Shown one piece after another: positions 54,607 to 64,000 of a stretch of DNA of 64,000 nucleotides. The notes beneath the pieces are model-generated. The model was not told where the DNA came from. It searched no databases and saw only the letters and a program-made list of their open reading frames with translations. The stretch's first letter is position 1. Each line of letters opens with the position of its first letter. The stretch is from Magnetococcales bacterium WMHbinv6 (GTDB lineage Bacteria; Pseudomonadota; Magnetococcia; Magnetococcales; Magnetaquicoccaceae). A program made the position numbers and the translations under genes. The stretch is from NCBI GenBank assembly GCA_002753135.1, contig PDZV01000001.1:124001-188000 (forward strand). The letters run 5' to 3'.

Positions 54607-55075
54607 TCATTTGACCAGAGCAATAGGGAAGTCGATGGTGATTTTGGACTTGACAGAGATGGGGGTCTGTTCGCCTTTGGTCAACTCCTTGACCCGTTTC
54701 GCCAAGTAGTGATCCAGTTGGCTCAGGGTGATGCTCCCGTCCTGAATGTTCTTGGCCTGACCGCTTAACCCCTCCACCAATGCTTTGGTAAAAGCTCCGT
54801 TGTTCCACCCTTCATTCTCCAGGGAATACTGTCGCCCGGTAGAGGATGTAAAAACCACCACGCCGTTTTCCGCTGAAACCAGATCGTTGACAATTTCATC
54901 CACATCTACCGGCACTCCACGACGATCTCCCATCACGTTGCCGGAATGACAGGTATCCAAAAACAACAAGACTTTGCCGGGCATCCCACTCAGGGTACTC
55001 TTGAAAGCGGTATGGATCACTCCAGAACTCTTGATGGCATCAAGATTGCCATCCGTGGGCATAAAATAATTAAAA
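54607..55075 (-). pseudogene. Caspase-fold (peptidase C14) protease, 5' part cut off by an IS200-type element
   Basis: About 152 residues remain from an internal ATG (55062). They include the p20 catalytic Cys strand KVLLFLDTCHSGN and the following VVVFTSSTGRQYSLENEGWNNGAFTKALVEGL of bacterial caspase-like proteases. The preceding NYFMPTDGNL is in the same frame upstream of that ATG, showing that the gene once began further up. The strand that carries the catalytic His, plus all of the N-terminus, is missing; the frame runs into the terminal hairpin of an IS200-type element at 55083. Nothing matching the lost part appears on the other side of the IS cluster. Bacterial caspase-like proteins often act in regulated cell death or phage defence, which fits the neighbourhood. 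Confidence 0.75.
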
Positions 55076-55732
55076 CAGGTAAACCACCGGCTATGCCGGT
55101 GGACTAACCAAGGCTATGCCGTTCCGTCGTGCTGTTAAAGGGTGTAGATAACCTCCTTTTCAACGAACCGCCAAGTTCATAAAAAGGAGGCTATCATGCG
55201 AGACTGGCAGAGCCAGACCCACGTCCGTTGGCATTGCAGGTATCACTTGGTTTTTGTGCCGAAATACAGGCACAAGGTGATCTATGGGAATTTGAGAAAG
55301 GGTATAGGTGCGATCCTTCGGGAGTTGTGCCAGCACCAGGGGGTGGAGTTGATAGAGGGGCATGCCATGCCCGATCACATTCACCTGTTGGTCAGTATAC
55401 CACCGAAATTCAGTGTGGCCAATACGGTTGGGATGTTGAAAGGCAAGTCAGCTATTCGGATTCATCGTGAGTATCTGGGCAGGAAGCAAAATTTTACCGG
55501 GTTTCATTTTTGGGCGAGGGGATATTGCGTCAGTACGGTTGGTTTGGAAGAGAGTGTGATCCGAGAGTACATCCGAAACCAGGAGCAGGAAGAGAAGCGG
55601 CAGGAACAGTTACAATTCTGGGGGCCTTTGCCTCCTTCATAAGGGAAAAGGCCCCTGAAGGGGCCTTCATAAGGACAATGGCCCCCTACGGGGGCCTTCA
55701 TCAAACCACCCGCTACGCGGGTGGTACGTGAT
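55076..55732 (+). mobile_element. IS200-type insertion sequence (tnpA only)
   Basis: A single tnpA gene lies between terminal hairpins of equal design, 8-bp stems with 3-base loops: left 55083-55101, right 55706-55724. Two further GC hairpins with repeated GGGGCCTTCAT lie between tnpA and the right end (55655-55700). Ends are approximate because IS200/IS605 elements make no target duplication. The left end cuts a caspase-like gene and the right end cuts the tail of an IS630 transposase gene, so this is the youngest insertion of the cluster. Confidence 0.85.
55196..55642 (+). CDS. tnpA: IS200/IS605-family TnpA (Y1 HUH transposase)
   Basis: 148 residues, full length for an IS200 TnpA. HUH motif HIHLLVSIP in GHAMPDHIHLL, N-terminal WHCRYHLVFVPKYRHKV, and the catalytic Tyr in the C-terminal helix (IREYIRNQEQ). 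It cuts and rejoins single-stranded DNA at hairpin-guided ends. AGGAGG is just upstream of the ATG. The gene looks intact. No tnpB accompanies it. Confidence 0.95.
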   Translation: MRDWQSQTHVRWHCRYHLVFVPKYRHKVIYGNLRKGIGAILRELCQHQGVELIEGHAMPDHIHLLVSIPPKFSVANTVGMLKGKSAIRIHREYLGRKQNFTGFHFWARGYCVSTVGLEESVIREYIRNQEQEEKRQEQLQFWGPLPPS

Positions 55733-56422
55733 TTTGATCCTCGCATCCTGGGTCGTGAACTGCCAATTCACTTTGCAGTCTCTCCGATTGCGCTCTTTTT
55801 CCCACGCGGAAACTTCCCTGTCCAGCGTCTCTCTATCAGGAATCCGCCGGTCCAAACACTGATTACTGAGGACGCTTAACTCGATTTCTGCCATATTTAA
55901 CCAACTGCCGTGTTTCGGTGTATAATGGATCTCAAGACGATCCAGTATCCTGCGTGCTTCCGCCGGTGCAAATGCCTGATACAATGACGCTGGCTTGTGT
56001 GTGTTCAGGTTGTCCATCACAAGGACAATCTTGTCAGCATCAGGGTAGTATTTATCCACCACATCACGAATTACATGAGCAAAATCAACCGACGTCCTAC
56101 GGTCAGTACTCTTGACGCGCCGTTTCCCTGAGAGTGGTTCAAAGATCATGAACATGTTGGCCGTTCCATTCCGCTCGTATTCATAATCGAATCTCTCGCT
56201 TTGACCCGGTCTTGCTGGAGTCGGTTGCCGCGTATCCTTCACCAGTTGCTTGAGAATCTCATCAAAACAGACCACAGGTCGTTGCGGATCGTAGGGTCGC
56301 TTGTAGACAGCAATCACATCCTCCATGGCACATACAAATTCTGCGTCAGCTTTTGGTGGAATCACCCATTGCTCTTTAAGCCACGGTTTAAGTTCGTTTT
56401 TTTTAGAACAAGACGGACACAC
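55667..56422 (-). CDS. IS630 transposase second frame (DDE domain), C-terminus interrupted
   Basis: Encodes the DDE_3 catalytic domain: VVCFDE (first Asp), VLVMDNLNTHK (second Asp) and HYTPKHGSWLNMAEIE (Glu). It is read by a -1 frameshift from the upstream frame at A8 on the minus strand (56397-56404), a standard slippery run. The C-terminus departs from the family after TTQDARIK: the last 20 or so codons lie in the IS200-type end, so the natural tail of the transposase and the terminal repeat of IS630 on that side are displaced or lost. The element is therefore probably inactive. Confidence 0.85.
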   Translation of the reverse strand: MCPSCSKKNELKPWLKEQWVIPPKADAEFVCAMEDVIAVYKRPYDPQRPVVCFDEILKQLVKDTRQPTPARPGQSERFDYEYERNGTANMFMIFEPLSGKRRVKSTDRRTSVDFAHVIRDVVDKYYPDADKIVLVMDNLNTHKPASLYQAFAPAEARRILDRLEIHYTPKHGSWLNMAEIELSVLSNQCLDRRIPDRETLDREVSAWEKERNRRDCKVNWQFTTQDARIKITYHPRSGWFDEGPRRGPLSL

Positions 56423-56880
56423 TCCGACGTAATGCTGTCTACCACATTCAATTCAACCAACTTGTCCGCCAACAGATTCAGCGTCCATCGTTTTCGACCT
56501 TCCGGTGGGGCACTACACGCCAACACGGTTAATAGTGCCTCCTGCTCCCCATCCAGTTTCCGAAACTGGCGTCCTTGGGGTTTCTTCCGGTACAGAGCTC
56601 CGTCATACCCGGCTTCAACGAACTCTTGCCGAACACGGTGGATGGTCGACAAACTGGTATCCAGAGCCTCTCGTATTTTTTCATCAGACCAATTTGGCCC
56701 GTCATCACCCTCGTCTGCCTTGAGCAAGATCCTGGCACGCAGAAGAACGGATGCTGCTGCTCGGCCCTTGCTGATCGATTCCTCCAACTTTGCTCGCTCT
56801 ATCGGCGTCAGACGTACCACATACTTGACCATGTCACACACTCCCGCTCGAATCTCCTGGAGCAAGGAGTATAACAGATT
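55733..56880 (-). mobile_element. IS630-family insertion sequence, 3' end truncated
   Basis: Two overlapping transposase frames (56362-56832 and 55667-56422) form one IS630 transposase via a -1 frameshift. The low-coordinate end is cut by the IS200-type element; the high-coordinate terminal repeat is not clearly recognised, so that limit is approximate. Confidence 0.75.
56362..56832 (-). CDS. IS630 transposase first frame (helix-turn-helix part)
   Basis: 156 residues: tandem HTH domain (RLTPIERAKLEESIS, SDEKIREALDTSLSTIHRVRQEF, GEQEALLTVLACSAPPEGRKRWTLNLLADKLVELN) up to LVLKKTN, then it leaves the family frame. The next codons in the -1 frame read NELKPWLKEQW, the usual continuation, so the full protein requires ribosomal slippage on the A8 run at 56397-56404. 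ATG at 56832 has GGGAG nine bases upstream. Confidence 0.85.
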   Translation of the reverse strand: MVKYVVRLTPIERAKLEESISKGRAAASVLLRARILLKADEGDDGPNWSDEKIREALDTSLSTIHRVRQEFVEAGYDGALYRKKPQGRQFRKLDGEQEALLTVLACSAPPEGRKRWTLNLLADKLVELNVVDSITSECVRLVLKKTNLNRGLKSNG

Positions 56881-56889
56881 AACGAAAGC

Positions 56890-57062
56890 CTGTCAGGTTA
56901 GCTCTGTCGTCCCACTAGTCGCTTTCCGCACGACACGCGATCAGGTCCGACAAGTCGGCAGGGCTTGGAACAAATCAAACGTCCCGAGAAGGGCTACGCC
57001 GTAGGCATATTGCCTGAAAAGTCAAACTGTTCCGGTCCCCCGGCAAAGCCGGGGGATTACCC
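56890..57062 (+). mobile_element. Orphan right end of a second IS200/IS605-type element
   Basis: A perfect hairpin CCCCCGGC-AAA-GCCGGGGG (57037-57044, 57048-57055) has the same 8-bp stem and 3-base loop as the two ends of the IS200 copy nearby. It lies about 33 bases after a plus-strand stop codon (57002-57004) that closes a short open stretch resembling the low-complexity tail of TnpB proteins. No transposase or nuclease domain is left. Probably the remnant of a tnpB-bearing element whose body was replaced by the IS630 insertion. Confidence 0.45.
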
Positions 57063-57075
57063 ATTGGATTTATTG

Positions 57076-59382
57076 TCAGTCAATAACTTTAATGTAGCTT
57101 CTGACATCCTTCAACATGGAAGTTAGAAATGAATCGTAGAAATTCGGCTTCCTGTGCGCACTGTTCAACTTAAGGTGGCAAAGCAGTGAAAAAGCTTTAC
57201 CTACCGATGCAGTATCTGAAAAGGGACAAAACGTTCCGATAATGTGGATCCGATGATTGAGGCTAATGCCCCGAAAACGACTGCCGTTGGGTTGCTGCCC
57301 GTATTTGAAGTGCCTCATTTTGTCCGGTTCGACTCCTATACCGAGCTGCTGCGCTAATACCAGTTCCCTTTCCTGGTCGCTGCCAATTTCCATGGCTAGG
57401 TAGAGATCCACCCCAGCATTGGCCAGGGTAGCCACAAGCCATTGCAGCATAGGCCAACCAGGAGCGGTCGAGTCAGGTGGACCAGTAAACAGGTTGAGTA
57501 CCGGTCGTAGCCCGACTCGAACGTCGATACCCAATCGCTTGCTAAGTGCCTGAAGCGCAAGGCAGGCTAGCCAACGCCAATGTTCGTCCCCGTTGACCCT
57601 GCGAAGTACGACCAGAGCTACCCTCTCCAATTCCAAGTCGATCTCATTAAAGGATCGATCCAGCTCGGTGGTCATCTCGTCAAGCTTCTGGCGATGATCC
57701 GTCCCAAGCGATGGATCATCCTCATTCCCCTTTTGTAGAATCGCCGGACGACCCGGTTCGTCGGACATACTTAGGGAGAGCAATGTGGTAGACCAGTCCT
57801 GGGCGAAGGCTTCGCAGCGGTGCCATAACTTATGAATTCTATCAGTCAGTCCTCTTTCTGGTGGGGGATCAAAGAGTTGATGACTGATCCGGGTGGCGTA
57901 GGGCTGGTCCACCTGCAGGTGCCGGAACCGCCACTCCTCCAGCATCTCTTCCCCTGTGCCCACATCCACAGCCTCGGCAACCCGGTCCAGCATCAGCTCC
58001 CCGGCGGCGGAACCGTGCAGACCCAGCATAGGCCAGCCCTTGCCCAGAGGACCTCGAGGTCCATAGAGGACGTAACGCCCATCTCGGCTTAGCCAGTTGC
58101 CGCTTAGGGAGTGGGTCGGCAGACACATTGCTTGGATGCCCGATGTCCCTGCAAGCAGTGCCGTGAGTCGCTGGTCGTGCGGTTCCAGTGGTTCGTAGAA
58201 CAGCAGAACAGTAGGTGCTGTCTCACTGTCACCGCGATTGTTACGCCAAAATGCCAATTGCTCTAACAGAAAGTCATCAACCTCTGTAAGTGCCAACACG
58301 GAAAAATAGCTGCCCGGTTTTCGCAACCATTCCCCCAACGAATTCTTCTGGAACACGTTGCGGTTCGGCAGAGTTAAGTCCAGTCGAATCAGTTCATCGG
58401 ACGTTTCGACCACTGCCCGATAAGTCTCCGAGATCGCCTCCAGATCCTCCGGCCCAGATGTGCCGTTCGCCAGATTTTTCAACCAACTATGGCAGTGTTG
58501 CTGCCACGCGTTCAGTTGTTCCTGAATGGGATTTTCCAGACGACAGCGGGTCTCTAACTCCCGGATAACCTCCTCCCGGTCCACCGCCGGGTTGGGCTGG
58601 GGATACCAGCGTCTCGCCCGGTCCACCTCCAGCAGAGCCACCTTGAGCGGATGCATTTGGACACTCTTGTCGTTAAGGGATCTGTTAAGTGTCTGAACCC
58701 ATGACGGAGGTAGCTCCGGTAGTTCGACGAAACGCAGCAGGTGGTCGTAGTCCTGTTCATCTTTCAGGTAGGCGTTGCCCAGGGGAAGATAGAGATTCAC
58801 TCGCCAGCGACCCTCCTGGGGGGGAAGGCGGTCGATGACGCGGTCCAGTATGAACTCGGGGTTGCGCTCCAACCCGAATGCCAGTGGCATACGGTTCAGA
58901 TGCTGGATCAAGCGGGCATGGGGGATCTCAGGAAAGTAGTCCTTCTGCAAGTCAAATGTGTCCTGGGAAAGGTCACTCAGAGTGATCATCTCGGCTGTCA
59001 TTGGGGACATAGCCTGATATTTGCGGACCATCTGCCAGGGAAGCAGCCAGCCTGTATGGTCATCCTGCCATACCTGGATGGTCGACCCCGGCTGGCGAGT
59101 AACGCGAAAACGTTCAGATGCAGTCCTCTGCACCTTCTGCACCGTGAACCCTTCCAAATCCAGGATGGCCAAATTGAAACGGATCAGTTCGCCTAATGCC
59201 TGTTCAATGAAACGGGGTGGCAGGCCGAAGGAATTGATGAGTCGGTCGATGTCATTAACCTGGTCCAGCACCTTCTCATAGAGAAACGCCGCAAATGGGC
59301 TGGGCCGAGACAGTGCCAAGTAAACCGGAGTTGCCGTATAGCGGTTGCCGGTCAGGTGCAGATAGAACCGAGATTCGGACAC
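57076..59382 (-). CDS. Mokosh-type MkoB candidate: large protein with PLD-like C-terminus
   Basis: About 768 residues from GTG at 59382, which has AGGGAGA nine bases upstream; an ATG at 59472 gives 798 residues but no ribosome site. No recognised N-terminal family; the first 650 residues look soluble and mixed helical. Near the C-terminus, a strand and helix (GVDLYLAMEIGSDQ), an HFK triplet (residues 721-723 of the longer form) and HRIHIIGTFCPFSD are what remains of a phospholipase-D-type HxK...GS nuclease half. The match is weak and the aspartate of the HKD motif is not in place. It lies downstream of the kinase-helicase gene on the same strand, and together they have the layout of Mokosh type I (helicase plus PLD protein). 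Its 3' end touches the IS cluster, the stop codon being 13 bases from the orphan hairpin region. Confidence 0.6.
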   Translation of the reverse strand: MSESRFYLHLTGNRYTATPVYLALSRPSPFAAFLYEKVLDQVNDIDRLINSFGLPPRFIEQALGELIRFNLAILDLEGFTVQKVQRTASERFRVTRQPGSTIQVWQDDHTGWLLPWQMVRKYQAMSPMTAEMITLSDLSQDTFDLQKDYFPEIPHARLIQHLNRMPLAFGLERNPEFILDRVIDRLPPQEGRWRVNLYLPLGNAYLKDEQDYDHLLRFVELPELPPSWVQTLNRSLNDKSVQMHPLKVALLEVDRARRWYPQPNPAVDREEVIRELETRCRLENPIQEQLNAWQQHCHSWLKNLANGTSGPEDLEAISETYRAVVETSDELIRLDLTLPNRNVFQKNSLGEWLRKPGSYFSVLALTEVDDFLLEQLAFWRNNRGDSETAPTVLLFYEPLEPHDQRLTALLAGTSGIQAMCLPTHSLSGNWLSRDGRYVLYGPRGPLGKGWPMLGLHGSAAGELMLDRVAEAVDVGTGEEMLEEWRFRHLQVDQPYATRISHQLFDPPPERGLTDRIHKLWHRCEAFAQDWSTTLLSLSMSDEPGRPAILQKGNEDDPSLGTDHRQKLDEMTTELDRSFNEIDLELERVALVVLRRVNGDEHWRWLACLALQALSKRLGIDVRVGLRPVLNLFTGPPDSTAPGWPMLQWLVATLANAGVDLYLAMEIGSDQERELVLAQQLGIGVEPDKMRHFKYGQQPNGSRFRGISLNHRIHIIGTFCPFSDTASVGKAFSLLCHLKLNSAHRKPNFYDSFLTSMLKDVRSYIKVID

Positions 59383-59583
59383 AAGGCTTTCTCCCTGATA
59401 GTGTTTCAGATCCGTACTTCCTGGATAAGATAATCCTGGAAATCGAGCTATGGTGTTTTGCGATTTTTTCATTCATCCGGCGCGCCGAACATCCGTTTAT
59501 CCTAATCGACCATGCCAAGCGGGGCACCAATTTTGCCACGGGCCATGGAACAAAACGGCGGCGAGATGGATCACAGCTCATGG

Positions 59584-62500
59584 TCAGTGGTAGCTACGCA
59601 CCACATCCCGCGCATCAATGACTGCATCCATCTCGTAACACAACTGAAAGAACCGCCACAGTTGGTTCTCAGCATCGGCTGCATCCCCAGGGAGATCGGG
59701 AAGTCGCTTCTGGGTCCAACGCCCTTTGGTGGCCCCTGGATTGATCTGCCGGGAACATCCCACAACTATCAACAACCGTTCAGCGCGAGATAGCATCACA
59801 GTGGCGCGGGAGGGGTCTTGCAGAAAACCGAGACGCTGGTTGATGCCACCATCGCTGGAGTTGTTGCGGGTCAAGCTGACCGCCACAATGTCCGCCTGAC
59901 GGCCTTGAAAACTGTCCACAGTAAAAACCCGCTTTCCCAAGGGGCCGGTGAATGGGTTGTCCCAATTGGCGAAATGTTGACGAAACATGCTGACCTGGGC
60001 TCGGTAGGGCGCGATGATCACCATTTTGCGGGACTGATGTCGGTAACCTCCTAAGCGCAGAAAGCCGAGTTGAGCACTCAAAAAGTCATGCAATACCCGG
60101 CACTCATACCTGTTGACGTAGCCTCCCCCCTTGGCTGCTTTCTCCCCCATATTCAGCCGGTCCGACTCCGACAATTCGGTGTCGTCGATGCGTGGGATAT
60201 CCAGCCACACCACCGTCCCAGGCCAGAATCGATACCGCGAGCCGGCAGGCATGTCATGCCGTTTCTTGGCATCAAATGATTCCAACTCGTCCAACGGCGG
60301 GTTTTGTAACTTTCCTTGGTAGAAGGCTTGGCTGACAAGGGTGCCGATGGTGGAATGCATGCGCCACTGGGTGTCCAACATGCCGGCTCGGCGCGGCCGT
60401 AGGACGGCGTTATTCTCATAGGCGCGTTCGAACAGGCGTAGCCAGTAACGGGTATCATCCACCAACTCACCGACCGTACTATAAGTGCTGTCATCATCCC
60501 GATTAGCCGAAGCCGCAGAGGTTCCGGCCAGCAACTCGAGGGGAAAAGAGGACGCTTCCTGGGCGTCACGCTCCGGGGTCAAGCCATATGCTGCGGCGGT
60601 CTGTTGCCGGAGAAAGGCCTCCTTGCGGCGCTCCAACAGGGCAAACATCTCTTTGATGCCGAACGGTGGCAATTGGTGGTGATCTCCGATCAACACCCAC
60701 CAGCGGGCCATTCGCATGGTGCCCAGCAGTTCAAGAGGGTGACCTCGGGCTGCCTCCTCGAAGATGACTAAGTCGAAGTTCTGGTCGCTGAGGCTATCCA
60801 GCCGGTTGTCGTTGGAGGTCGCATAGACCAAATTGGCCGACTGCACGAAGGCGTCGACGAAATGGGCCGAAACGCCTTCTTTCAGCTCCGTGTTGACCCA
60901 TTCCGCCCAAGCCTGGAGAATATCCTCATCTGCAACCTGACGCCTCTGCGAAAGCTGATTCGGTCTCCAATTGCGGGCCTTTTCCAGACAGGCCCGAGCC
61001 TGCTCCTCCGGACTGAATTTCTGCAGCAGTTCCGAAGCCTCCGAGCGTTGGGCATGGGCCAGACGTACACGGATGGGTTTCTGAAATCCCGCCCACGCCA
61101 CCTCCTGATTGGCTGTGAAGTCAGGCAGGGCGTTCTCAATGCGTTCCAGTAGATTGTTTAACGGGTCGTGGCCCTGTGAGGTGACCAGGATGCGGGCCGA
61201 TGGGTTCTCGGCCAGGACTTGCAGCACAAGTTCGGCGGCAAAGGTGGTCTTGCCGGTGCCGGGTGGGCCCTGCACGCAGAAAATCGGCCGTTGATCGAGG
61301 CACGACTGAACCAAGTCCTTCTTGGCCTTATCCAGAGGCTTTATGAAGGGCTCCCTGGCGATTACCCCAAGGCGCGGAGATTTGATGTGATGTCTGACTA
61401 GCACGGACTCCAGCAGATAGGGATCCTGGTAGATATCCTGCAGAACGCGCTGTCGCCGCTGGAACAGCGGCTGCATGAGTTCCACCGAGACCGGTCGTAG
61501 AAACCCCTGACGACCCAGCGACGGTCCCTCGCCAACCAACTGTTGGCGTAGGATCACCGCATCCTTCTCCAAATTCTCGACGTACCAGGAGTATGCCTCC
61601 CGATCGTGAAACCGCATGGGGTCCTGGGAATGACTGAAGATGAACCGGTTGTCCGAGTGGGAGCGGTTGCGTTCCACCATGTCCAAAAGATCCTGCTCGC
61701 CCACCTTGCGCTCAGAGGACCTCAGCATGTTCTGTTTGATCCGGATGCGCCGGAAACCATCCTGGTTCGGCAACGCCTCCACATCGCAGTCGATGATGAA
61801 CGATTCCTGCAACTCCTTCTCCAGGTCCGCAGTCAGCCCCAAGAGTTTCCAGAAACGGAGTTGAGCAGGATTCAACTCGTTCTCTTCATGTTGGACTAGC
61901 TCAAACAGAGGCTTCCAGGATTGGTTGTCCTCTCCTCGCAACTCCGGAATCACCGATGGATCGAAACCGCGCAAGGCGACTCCGCCAGTCAGCTTCATCA
62001 GAGGTTCTCCCACCGGTCGGTGGGATATAAAAGCCAGGGTGATGTAGGCAAAATCGTGCCTAGACGTTTGACTGTTCCCAACACCAGTGGTATAGGGCTC
62101 GGCGCGAAACAGGCATTTGGTTCCCTGCAGCAGAATGGCCGGTTTTTGTGGCGTGCTCGCACTATCCTTGAAGACTAGGGCGTTCTTCAACTGCGCCATG
62201 ATAATGTTTAGCCAGTGATTCCGAACTGCATCTGGGGACAGATGTTCAGTCGGTCTCAACTCCGGGTGCGCTTTGTGTAGCACATTTAGGATGTTATAGG
62301 CGTGATCCGGGTTGAGGTTCAGGAACCCCAGAGGCGGCTTGTCATTGAATTCGGCGACCAGATCGCCATCGAAGCGGGCAAACCGCCGCACTTGCTCAAG
62401 GACTGGATCCAGGTCGCTGACCCGCTGGGTATGATCGAAAACCAGCATGCTCTTGATGACGTCGGCTTCGTTGGCGGTCAGGTCGCCTGCATCGACCGCG

Positions 62501-64000
62501 TTTTGTACCTCCTCATGGCGCCGCGTGACCCACCTTTTATGATCATCATAGCTGTAATGGCCCAGGGATGTAGCTTCGTGGCGTTCGCCGGAATCCAGAC
62601 GCCGCACTAGGCATTCGAACAGCACGAGACCCAACCCGTAGATGTCCACGCCAAACCCTTCACCTCGCACCCGCTCACTCTCTTCCCTCCAACTACGAAG
62701 TGCTTCTGGGGCGACATAATAGTCGACGGGCAGTGCCATCTGCTCTGCCTGGCAGTTGACGGCGGCGTGCAGGTAAAGCGACATCTCGAAAAAGCCCAGT
62801 TTCAGCAGTGGATTGGACTTTTCAATCTCGCTTCCACCAGAGATGAAGATGCTGTCTGGACGGATAAAGCGGTGCAGAAAATACCTCTGGTGCATGTTGG
62901 CTACGGCGGTCAACACATAACCCAGGTGGCGCCACAGGTGTTTTCTGTTACCCGGTGCCAGCAAACCAATGCGGCCCTGGTCAAGCATGCTGCGTAATGT
63001 GCCATGCTTGGTGTGTTCGCTCAGCAGGAACAAACGCCGACCATCATGGGAAAAAGCCGCTTGGTGCAGGCGAATCAGTGCCTTACCGGAGGACCGGGTA
63101 CTCAGGTGGTCCAGAACCCGACGCTCGGCGGCCCAGATCGACTGCAGCAACCCCCGACTGGTCTCGGAACCTCCCGCCAAGCCATAGACGCGCATGGTGA
63201 GTTGTTGGCCCCGGGTGGTCACCAAATAGGCCCGCACTGAATCCAGCTTAAAACCCGGCAGCAGAGACCAGGAGATCGGTGTTATAATTTCCAGATCATT
63301 GCTGATGGCTTTTCTGGCCGCTTGACGGTCTTCCTCTTTCAGTGCGGACTCCTCAAATATGTGCTGTTGGGTTCCAGTTAGGGGCTCCTGCAGGAACTTG
63401 TCACTCCGTATTTTCGACAATGTTTCGCACAAATTCTTACGCCAGCCCCCTTGAAGGCCTGGCGCGTCACCCTCTGGATGCATCCTGGGTCGGGGGTGCC
63501 ACAGACGCTCCCTGCCAGTCAACAGGACATTCCAATCGTTCCAGGCTTGGCGGTAGTCTGATGTGGCATACTGGTTGTCGGGAGAGATGGGAGTGAGATT
63601 CTCGAACAAATATCGGATTTGCTCCACAGCGAGTTTGCCGAGGGATTCCTGATCCGACTCGGCGAACGTGTCAATCTGTTCGAAAACCAGTTTGTAGAGT
63701 TGGCATAGCACGCCGAATAAATTAAAAAAATTATTAAAATCTTGGTTGTCGGTACGCAACAGGGTTTCATCCAGGTTATCAATGAACTCTTTCGTGGCTT
63801 TGACGATGGCGTCAGCCGGGGTCCCCATTACCTTTAGGCGCCAAGCAGCCTCAGCCTCTTGGGGGCGATTACACAAAAGGCTGGGTAACACTTTTCCCAG
63901 ACGTTCCCGGACCAGGGTGTTCAATGCCTCCTTGTTTGCGCCCGGCGGCAACTGATCACGCACATCCATCAGCGCCCGGGCCGGAAAGTTGCCCGTATCG
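59584..64000 (-). CDS. Mokosh-type MkoA candidate: pseudokinase fused to SF1 RNA/DNA helicase, 5' end beyond the window
   Basis: At least 1,461 residues. The ATG at 63969 has no ribosome site and the frame stays open to base 64000, so the true start is probably outside. After about 230 unassigned residues comes a protein-kinase-like domain (about 235-560) with APE (YVAPEAL) and DIYGLGLVLFECL, but the HRD loop reads LHRFIRPDSI, the DFG site reads LGFFE and the VAIK Lys is Arg: probably a pseudokinase. Residues about 880-1440 form a UPF1/Dna2-type SF1 helicase: Walker A GPPGTGKTT (about 900), motif II FEEAARG, motif III GDHHQLPP, motif V VDSFQGRQADIV, motif VI LSRAERLL. Followed 112-200 bases later by the PLD-like gene. 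This matches Mokosh type I helicase proteins. It could also be another kinase-helicase defence protein. Confidence 0.8.
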   Translation of the reverse strand, partial: DTGNFPARALMDVRDQLPPGANKEALNTLVRERLGKVLPSLLCNRPQEAEAAWRLKVMGTPADAIVKATKEFIDNLDETLLRTDNQDFNNFFNLFGVLCQLYKLVFEQIDTFAESDQESLGKLAVEQIRYLFENLTPISPDNQYATSDYRQAWNDWNVLLTGRERLWHPRPRMHPEGDAPGLQGGWRKNLCETLSKIRSDKFLQEPLTGTQQHIFEESALKEEDRQAARKAISNDLEIITPISWSLLPGFKLDSVRAYLVTTRGQQLTMRVYGLAGGSETSRGLLQSIWAAERRVLDHLSTRSSGKALIRLHQAAFSHDGRRLFLLSEHTKHGTLRSMLDQGRIGLLAPGNRKHLWRHLGYVLTAVANMHQRYFLHRFIRPDSIFISGGSEIEKSNPLLKLGFFEMSLYLHAAVNCQAEQMALPVDYYVAPEALRSWREESERVRGEGFGVDIYGLGLVLFECLVRRLDSGERHEATSLGHYSYDDHKRWVTRRHEEVQNAVDAGDLTANEADVIKSMLVFDHTQRVSDLDPVLEQVRRFARFDGDLVAEFNDKPPLGFLNLNPDHAYNILNVLHKAHPELRPTEHLSPDAVRNHWLNIIMAQLKNALVFKDSASTPQKPAILLQGTKCLFRAEPYTTGVGNSQTSRHDFAYITLAFISHRPVGEPLMKLTGGVALRGFDPSVIPELRGEDNQSWKPLFELVQHEENELNPAQLRFWKLLGLTADLEKELQESFIIDCDVEALPNQDGFRRIRIKQNMLRSSERKVGEQDLLDMVERNRSHSDNRFIFSHSQDPMRFHDREAYSWYVENLEKDAVILRQQLVGEGPSLGRQGFLRPVSVELMQPLFQRRQRVLQDIYQDPYLLESVLVRHHIKSPRLGVIAREPFIKPLDKAKKDLVQSCLDQRPIFCVQGPPGTGKTTFAAELVLQVLAENPSARILVTSQGHDPLNNLLERIENALPDFTANQEVAWAGFQKPIRVRLAHAQRSEASELLQKFSPEEQARACLEKARNWRPNQLSQRRQVADEDILQAWAEWVNTELKEGVSAHFVDAFVQSANLVYATSNDNRLDSLSDQNFDLVIFEEAARGHPLELLGTMRMARWWVLIGDHHQLPPFGIKEMFALLERRKEAFLRQQTAAAYGLTPERDAQEASSFPLELLAGTSAASANRDDDSTYSTVGELVDDTRYWLRLFERAYENNAVLRPRRAGMLDTQWRMHSTIGTLVSQAFYQGKLQNPPLDELESFDAKKRHDMPAGSRYRFWPGTVVWLDIPRIDDTELSESDRLNMGEKAAKGGGYVNRYECRVLHDFLSAQLGFLRLGGYRHQSRKMVIIAPYRAQVSMFRQHFANWDNPFTGPLGKRVFTVDSFQGRQADIVAVSLTRNNSSDGGINQRLGFLQDPSRATVMLSRAERLLIVVGCSRQINPGATKGRWTQKRLPDLPGDAADAENQLWRFFQLCYEMDAVIDARDVVRSYH

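What the first reader, a model, noticed from the sequence alone, without database searches (positions are those of the whole stretch)
57076..64000. Two-gene Mokosh-like anti-phage locus at the right edge
A very large protein joining a kinase-like domain to a UPF1/Dna2-type SF1 helicase is followed on the same strand by an 800-residue protein with a PLD-like C-terminus. This is the gene order and domain content of type I Mokosh as I know it (helicase with kinase domain plus PLD nuclease). Surroundings (caspase-like protease, MdaB, DUF2252, several IS) look like a defence island. The members here are divergent enough that a new subtype is possible.
Basis: partly seen in the sequence, partly recalled or inferred. 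Interest (0 to 1): 0.85.

Follow-up and report, generated by a model that had tools for sequence, protein, structure and literature searches.

The report
Mokosh-like defence locus with NLR-type switch
This is a bacterial anti-virus gene cluster related to the known Mokosh system, but its giant helicase protein carries an extra sensor-type ATPase at its front, and its partner protein lacks the nuclease active site that normally defines the system.

Summary
On the source contig the helicase gene runs about 2.2 kb past position 64000. It encodes about 2,212 aa: an N-terminal STAND-type ATPase (NLR-like), an about 600-aa region of unknown fold, a kinase-like domain without its catalytic residues, and a UPF1-like SF1 helicase with all checked motifs intact. 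The kinase+helicase half is a clear MkoA homologue (PADLOC E=8e-168) but only 25-31% identical to other MkoAs. The 768/798-aa downstream protein sits where MkoB should be. It resembles MkoB only weakly, in an N-terminal segment, and has no HxKx4D motif and no detectable PLD domain. A 361-aa orphan gene lies 7 nt upstream, and a Lamassu-type operon lies upstream of that. The segment is absent from a sister species, so it is a variable defence island. I file it as a Mokosh type I-like variant, not a complete type I Mokosh: MkoA membership is supported, the defining PLD nuclease was tested and not met. No second example of the fusion was found, so nothing shows conservation, and function is inferred. 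Side finding: 9 of 12 comparison MkoAs carry a pseudokinase.

The parts
59584..64000 (-). C-terminal two thirds of the giant MkoA-like gene. The gene continues outside the window to 66222-equivalent (G000:C1:183584-190222), 2212 aa in all.
   Evidence: one open frame, codon-position GC pattern continuous over codons 1-2212. PADLOC MkoA 7.8e-168.
62416..63126 (-). Kinase-like domain. VAIK Lys is Arg, HRD is HRF, DFG is GFF/E; APE and subdomain IX Asp retained: predicted pseudokinase.
   Evidence: Pfam Pkinase 1.1e-11; alignment of 14 MkoA-like proteins.
59752..61335 (-). UPF1-like SF1 helicase core: GPPGTGKT (61269), FEEAARG (60762), GDHHQLPP (60687), WRMHST (60366), DSFQGRQAD (59916), MLSRAER (59796).
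   Evidence: Pfam AAA_11 1.9e-24 and AAA_12 1e-33; PDB hits IGHMBP2/UPF1/SEN1; motif positions.
57076..59472 (-). Second gene at the MkoB position: 798 aa from ATG 59472, or 768 aa from GTG 59382 (better ribosome-binding site). No HKD motif, no detectable PLD domain.
58984..59301 (-). MkoB-like N-terminal segment (probable winged helix), the only stretch with a family match.
   Evidence: PADLOC MkoB E 0.0018, residues 58-163; hhalign single-comparison E 0.005; 39 of 3000 shuffles score as high against a 12-sequence MkoB HMM: weak.
55667..57004 (-). Insertion sequence bordering the system downstream (two overlapping transposase-type ORFs; family, IS630-like, named from recall). It does not truncate the second gene, which has its own stop at 57076.
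   Evidence: ORF list and sequence.

Best explanation
A divergent, Mokosh type I-related anti-phage operon in which an NLR-like STAND ATPase has been fused to the front of MkoA. Proposed mechanism: the STAND module (intact Walker A and B, GxP motif) is the NTP-dependent switch. On recognising an invader, through the uncharacterised middle region and possibly the 361-aa upstream protein, it binds or hydrolyses ATP and multimerises. The pseudokinase couples that state to the SF1 helicase, which engages and translocates on invader nucleic acid. The downstream protein docks through its MkoB-like N-terminal segment and acts as adaptor or effector, but not through a canonical HKD PLD active site. 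The outcome would be blockage of phage nucleic acid or abortive infection. Shown here: the ORFs, the MkoA relationship, STAND and helicase motifs, loss of kinase catalytic residues, absence of HKD, gene order, island context. Inferred: defence function, switching, complex formation, outcome.
For: MkoA HMM 7.8e-168. Single continuous 2212-codon frame with uniform codon-phase GC. N-terminal AAA_16 3.5e-8, ATPase_2 3.2e-7, NACHT 0.0028, with GPRRIGKTS, VIILDEFDE and QGYPLAVNC at residues 63, 172 and 274. The six helicase motif blocks compared are conserved with other MkoAs. qC-qA spacing 7 nt, all three genes co-oriented. Adjacent Lamassu operon (LmuB 2e-128, LmuA 9e-56). The segment C1 178.6-195.6 kb is missing from sister species G020, whose matching sequence ends at MdaB on one side and at C1 195556 on the other. 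Precedent for STAND modules as NTP switches in bacterial conflict systems: PMC7159879, PMC8195603.
Against: No second locus with this fusion, with the downstream protein or with the upstream protein was found: 48 class genomes; about 400 phylum, 289 and 303 class-level genomes (helicase matches only); plasmids, phages, IMG/VR patterns. Operon membership and function therefore lack conservation support. The downstream protein's match to MkoB is weak. Without a recognised nuclease the effector step is unspecified. No phage assay exists.
Confidence: 0.6

Rival explanations
1. Ordinary type I Mokosh, merely divergent: the downstream protein is an MkoB with a PLD nuclease too diverged to detect, and the N-terminal extension only regulates it.
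For: Gene order and MkoA family match. MkoB models match the N-terminal segment. Another divergent MkoB (L046) has decayed HKD motifs yet still matches MkoB (2e-36) and PLDc_2 (7e-7). By eye, SGNWLSRD and RFRGISLN could sit where HxKx4D should be.
Against: No HxKx4D anywhere. C-terminal half no better than shuffles against both PLD-half profiles. Even if the fold is PLD, the catalytic His/Lys pairs are absent.
Confidence: 0.25
2. An NLR/Avs-like system in its own right: the STAND protein is the sensor and pseudokinase-helicase is its fused effector; the downstream gene is an unrelated neighbour.
For: STAND module at the N-terminus with active-site motifs. Downstream gene separated by 111-201 nt and only marginally MkoB-like.
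Against: In the annotated type I Mokosh loci read here the gene after MkoA is MkoB-like or unnamed at the same position, and the gene in this position has at least a weak MkoB segment.
Confidence: 0.15
3. A decaying, non-functional island: pseudokinase, lost nuclease motif, nearby caspase fragment and IS copies reflect degeneration.
For: IS and a caspase-domain fragment lie directly downstream.
Against: 2212-, 798- and 361-codon frames are intact, with coding-type codon-phase GC in the two large ones. Helicase and STAND ATP sites are intact. The pseudokinase state is shared by 9 other MkoAs, so it is not local decay.
Confidence: 0.1

Closest known systems
Mokosh type I (mkoA-mkoB)
   Same: Kinase-like domain plus UPF1/COG1112 helicase in one protein, partner gene directly downstream on the same strand.
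   Different: About 1,000-aa N-terminal STAND-containing extension (canonical MkoA about 1,100-1,250 aa); helicase only 25-31% identical; partner lacks HKD/PLD signature; extra 361-aa gene upstream.
Mokosh type II (mkoC)
   Same: Related SF1 helicase (MkoC HMM 2e-19).
   Different: Type II has helicase and PLD in one protein; here no PLD is found at all.
STAND/NLR-like bacterial defence NTPases (Avs, bNACHT, conflict-system STANDs)
   Same: Walker A GPRRIGKTS, Walker B DEFDE, GxP motif; AAA_16 and weak NACHT Pfam matches.
   Different: Fused to pseudokinase+SF1 helicase rather than to the effectors usual in those systems (comparison from literature and recall, not a survey).
Active/inactive STAND pairs described in eLife 2021 (PMC8195603)
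   Same: Possible parallel: the upstream 361-aa protein by eye shows a STAND-like strand order with eroded motifs next to an active STAND.
   Different: Not supported by a pairwise test; no HMM match; model too poor to use.

Membership tests
Mokosh type I | COG1112/UPF1-type SF1 helicase (MkoA) | tested here: met
   PADLOC MkoA 7.8e-168; six motif blocks aligned.
Mokosh type I | Serine/threonine-kinase-like domain in the helicase protein | tested here: met
   Pfam Pkinase 1.1e-11. Catalytic residues absent, as in 9 of 12 comparison MkoAs with a complete kinase domain.
Mokosh type I | Separate partner gene adjacent to and downstream of MkoA | tested here: met
   ORFs 59584-66222 and 57076-59472, same strand.
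Mokosh type I | Partner belongs to the MkoB family | tested here: inconclusive
   PADLOC E 0.0018 over 106 aa; 39/3000 shuffles as good against a 12-sequence HMM.
Mokosh type I | Partner carries a PLD-family nuclease domain | tested here: not met
   No HxKx4D, no Pfam PLD at E<=10, no profile signal. Degenerate PLD fold not excluded: structure model unusable (pLDDT 36).
Mokosh type I | Anti-phage activity | not testable with these tools
   Needs expression and phage challenge.
Mokosh type II | Helicase and PLD fused in a single protein | tested here: not met
   No PLD match in the 2267-aa ORF.
STAND NTPase | P-loop Walker A/B and C-terminal GxP motif | tested here: met
   GPRRIGKTS, VIILDEFDE, QGYPLAVNC; AAA_16 above cutoff, NACHT 0.0028 below cutoff.
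STAND NTPase | Ligand-induced multimerisation | not testable with these tools
   Needs biochemistry or structure.
   None among the 18 PADLOC matches of the whole protein; the top two are MkoA.

The most novel reading that the evidence does not exclude
A third architecture of Mokosh: an NLR-like STAND switch fused to a pseudokinase-SF1 helicase, working with an upstream inactive-STAND-like protein and a downstream partner that has lost PLD catalysis. Sensing, signal coupling and nucleic-acid translocation would then lie in one chain, with the nuclease dispensable or replaced.
Probability: 0.3. Interest if true: 0.72.

Novelty: new variant of a known kind. Interest (0 to 1): 0.52.

Why it matters
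How Mokosh senses infection is not established in the papers read here. A natural fusion of its helicase to an NLR-type switch would suggest that the helicase module is an effector placed under NTP-switch control, and would make that testable by Walker-motif mutants. The side finding, that most compared MkoA 'kinases' lack the catalytic Asp residues while a minority keep them, suggests that phosphorylation is not the general output of type I Mokosh.

Tried and rejected
AlphaFold2 on the downstream protein and on the 361-aa protein gave unusable single-sequence models (mean pLDDT 36.2 and 38.5), so no fold search was run. A genome-contig scan with conserved helicase peptides returned only unrelated Bacteroidales helicases. 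IMG/VR scans found one canonical type I locus (L032) and nothing like the fusion. Pairwise and profile tests for a PLD half-domain in the C-terminus were at noise level. A pairwise test of the 361-aa protein against the STAND module was negative (z -0.95). Truncation of the second gene by the neighbouring IS was rejected: its stop lies outside the IS ORFs. A DISARM/BREX or type II assignment was rejected by HMM ranking. In the helicase tree the protein is a deep, unresolved branch (support 45/50, long-branch warning), so no subgroup is claimed.

Full report
What is in the sequence. The window is positions 124001-188000 of a 243-kb contig in a genome of 3.84 Mb. The first is cut by the window edge: on the contig it continues, in the same frame, to L002:14387, i.e. 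2267 codons. The most likely start is the ATG at L002:14222, 7 nt after the stop of an upstream gene, giving 2212 aa. Codon-position GC content keeps one coding phase over the whole length, so this is one gene, not a frameshift artefact.

Domains of the giant protein. Residues about 30-300 (from the ATG) are a STAND-type P-loop NTPase: AAA_16 at 3.5e-8, above its cut-off, ATPase_2, and a weak NACHT match spanning the module, with Walker A GPRRIGKTS, Walker B VIILDEFDE and a GxP motif in QGYPLAVNC. About 600 residues after it have no Pfam match. Then follow a kinase-like domain and a UPF1-like helicase. PADLOC's MkoA model matches the kinase+helicase part at 7.8e-168; no DISARM or BREX model is among the 18 PADLOC matches. 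PDB relatives are IGHMBP2, UPF1 and SEN1.

Comparison with other MkoA proteins. I assembled 13 further MkoA-like proteins from plasmid records, public genomes and one viral contig. The alignment shows the query shares the helicase motif blocks with all of them. Two groups appear. Three proteins (Nostoc, Tolypothrix, Agrobacterium CFBP5877) keep HRD and a D-[FY]-G motif (DYG in CFBP5877) in the kinase, and DEAS in helicase motif II. Nine others, and the query, have lost the HRD and DFG aspartates and carry EEA or EES in motif II; one further protein is N-terminally incomplete. So the query's 'kinase' is a predicted pseudokinase, but this is common in the family. Helicase identity to the others is 25-31%, and the tree places the query on a long, unsupported branch. 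None of the 13 reaches the query's length: annotated or read lengths are 804-1254 aa.

The downstream protein. Canonical MkoBs mostly have HxKx4D motifs, usually two, and Pfam PLDc_2. This protein has none. Its only family signal is PADLOC MkoB at E 0.0018 over residues 58-163, the region where canonical MkoB has a probable winged helix. Against a 12-sequence MkoB HMM, 39 of 3000 shuffled copies score as well, and the two PLD-half profiles give nothing. By eye, SGNWLSRD and RFRGISLN could occupy the HKD positions of a decayed PLD, but no statistic supports that. Two other divergent MkoBs show such erosion is possible: L046 (no canonical HKD but PLDc_2 7e-7) and L050 (MkoB 1.7e-37 with neither HKD nor PLD match).

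The upstream gene. L002:14230-15315 encodes 361 aa with no convincing match in Pfam, PADLOC, NCBIfam or PDB. By eye its strand order (GWTVLPITL ... KFLIVVVNTHFL ... NNVVLLLSNT) recalls a STAND domain with eroded Walker motifs, which would parallel the active/inactive STAND pairs described in PMC8195603. A pairwise test against the neighbouring STAND module was negative. It remains a hypothesis.

Context. Upstream and co-oriented lies a Lamassu-type operon: LmuA 9e-56, LmuC 3e-6, LmuB 2e-128. Sister species G020 shares the ispE - tRNA-Gln - MdaB side and, on another contig, sequence from C1 195556 onward at 96% identity, but nothing between C1 178.6 and 195.5 kb. That interval is therefore a variable, roughly 17-kb defence island. 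It also holds IS copies and a caspase-domain fragment.

Rarity. No relative of the N-terminal half, the downstream protein or the upstream protein was found where each was searched: 48 class genomes (downstream protein); 398 phylum genomes (N-terminal half); 72,556 plasmids for all three; 50,697 phage records (downstream and upstream proteins; whole helicase protein); IMG/VR pattern scans. Searches with the whole giant protein in 398, 289 and 303 genomes returned only canonical helicase matches. These searches are not exhaustive; the one scan of 85k species genomes used exact peptides and would miss diverged relatives.

Interpretation. Mokosh is defined in the literature as an RNA helicase (COG1112) plus a PLD nuclease, type I having them in separate genes with an added kinase domain (PMC11672841). 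The helicase protein passes as MkoA. The locus does not pass as complete type I Mokosh, because the PLD nuclease was looked for and not found. The best reading is a Mokosh type I-like variant whose helicase is under an NLR-type NTP switch. What is shown is anatomy; sensing, switching, complex formation and outcome are inferred from the families involved.

Noticed in passing
L008, L009, L030, L031, L032, L046, L047, L052, L053 versus L049, L050, L054: Kinase-like domain of type I MkoA falls into two states: HRD plus D-[FY]-G kept with helicase motif DEAS (3 proteins), or both catalytic Asp lost with EEA/EES in motif II (9 proteins plus the query). Suggests most 'STK' domains of Mokosh are pseudokinases.
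   Followed up: partly
L050:4667-11481: Agrobacterium CFBP5877 plasmid locus: kinase-kept MkoA, an MkoB with no HKD motif or PLD match, then PP2C phosphatase and DUF3800 genes; possible Mokosh variant with a replaced nuclease and a phosphatase partner.
   Followed up: partly
L002:15536-19228 (window-equivalent 67536-71228): Lamassu-type operon lmuA (weak Cap4 nuclease, CTD7) - lmuC (MC3) - lmuB (DUF3732), immediately upstream of the Mokosh-like operon.
   Followed up: partly
window 54607-55062 (-): Caspase-like ORF matching only the C-terminal half of Peptidase_C14 (positions 109-231 of 233): a truncated fragment next to IS copies.
   Followed up: no
L070 (G020:C525) versus L071 (G020:C536): In the sister MAG one flank is 96% identical to this genome while the ispE flank is 67% identical: recent transfer, or a misbinned contig.
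   Followed up: no
L002:14230-14350: Imperfect two-copy repeat of about 55-60 nt at the end of the 361-aa gene, just before the start of the giant gene; found once in the genome.
   Followed up: partly
window 55634-55693: Two tandem 30-31-nt units beside the IS200-like ORF.
   Followed up: no
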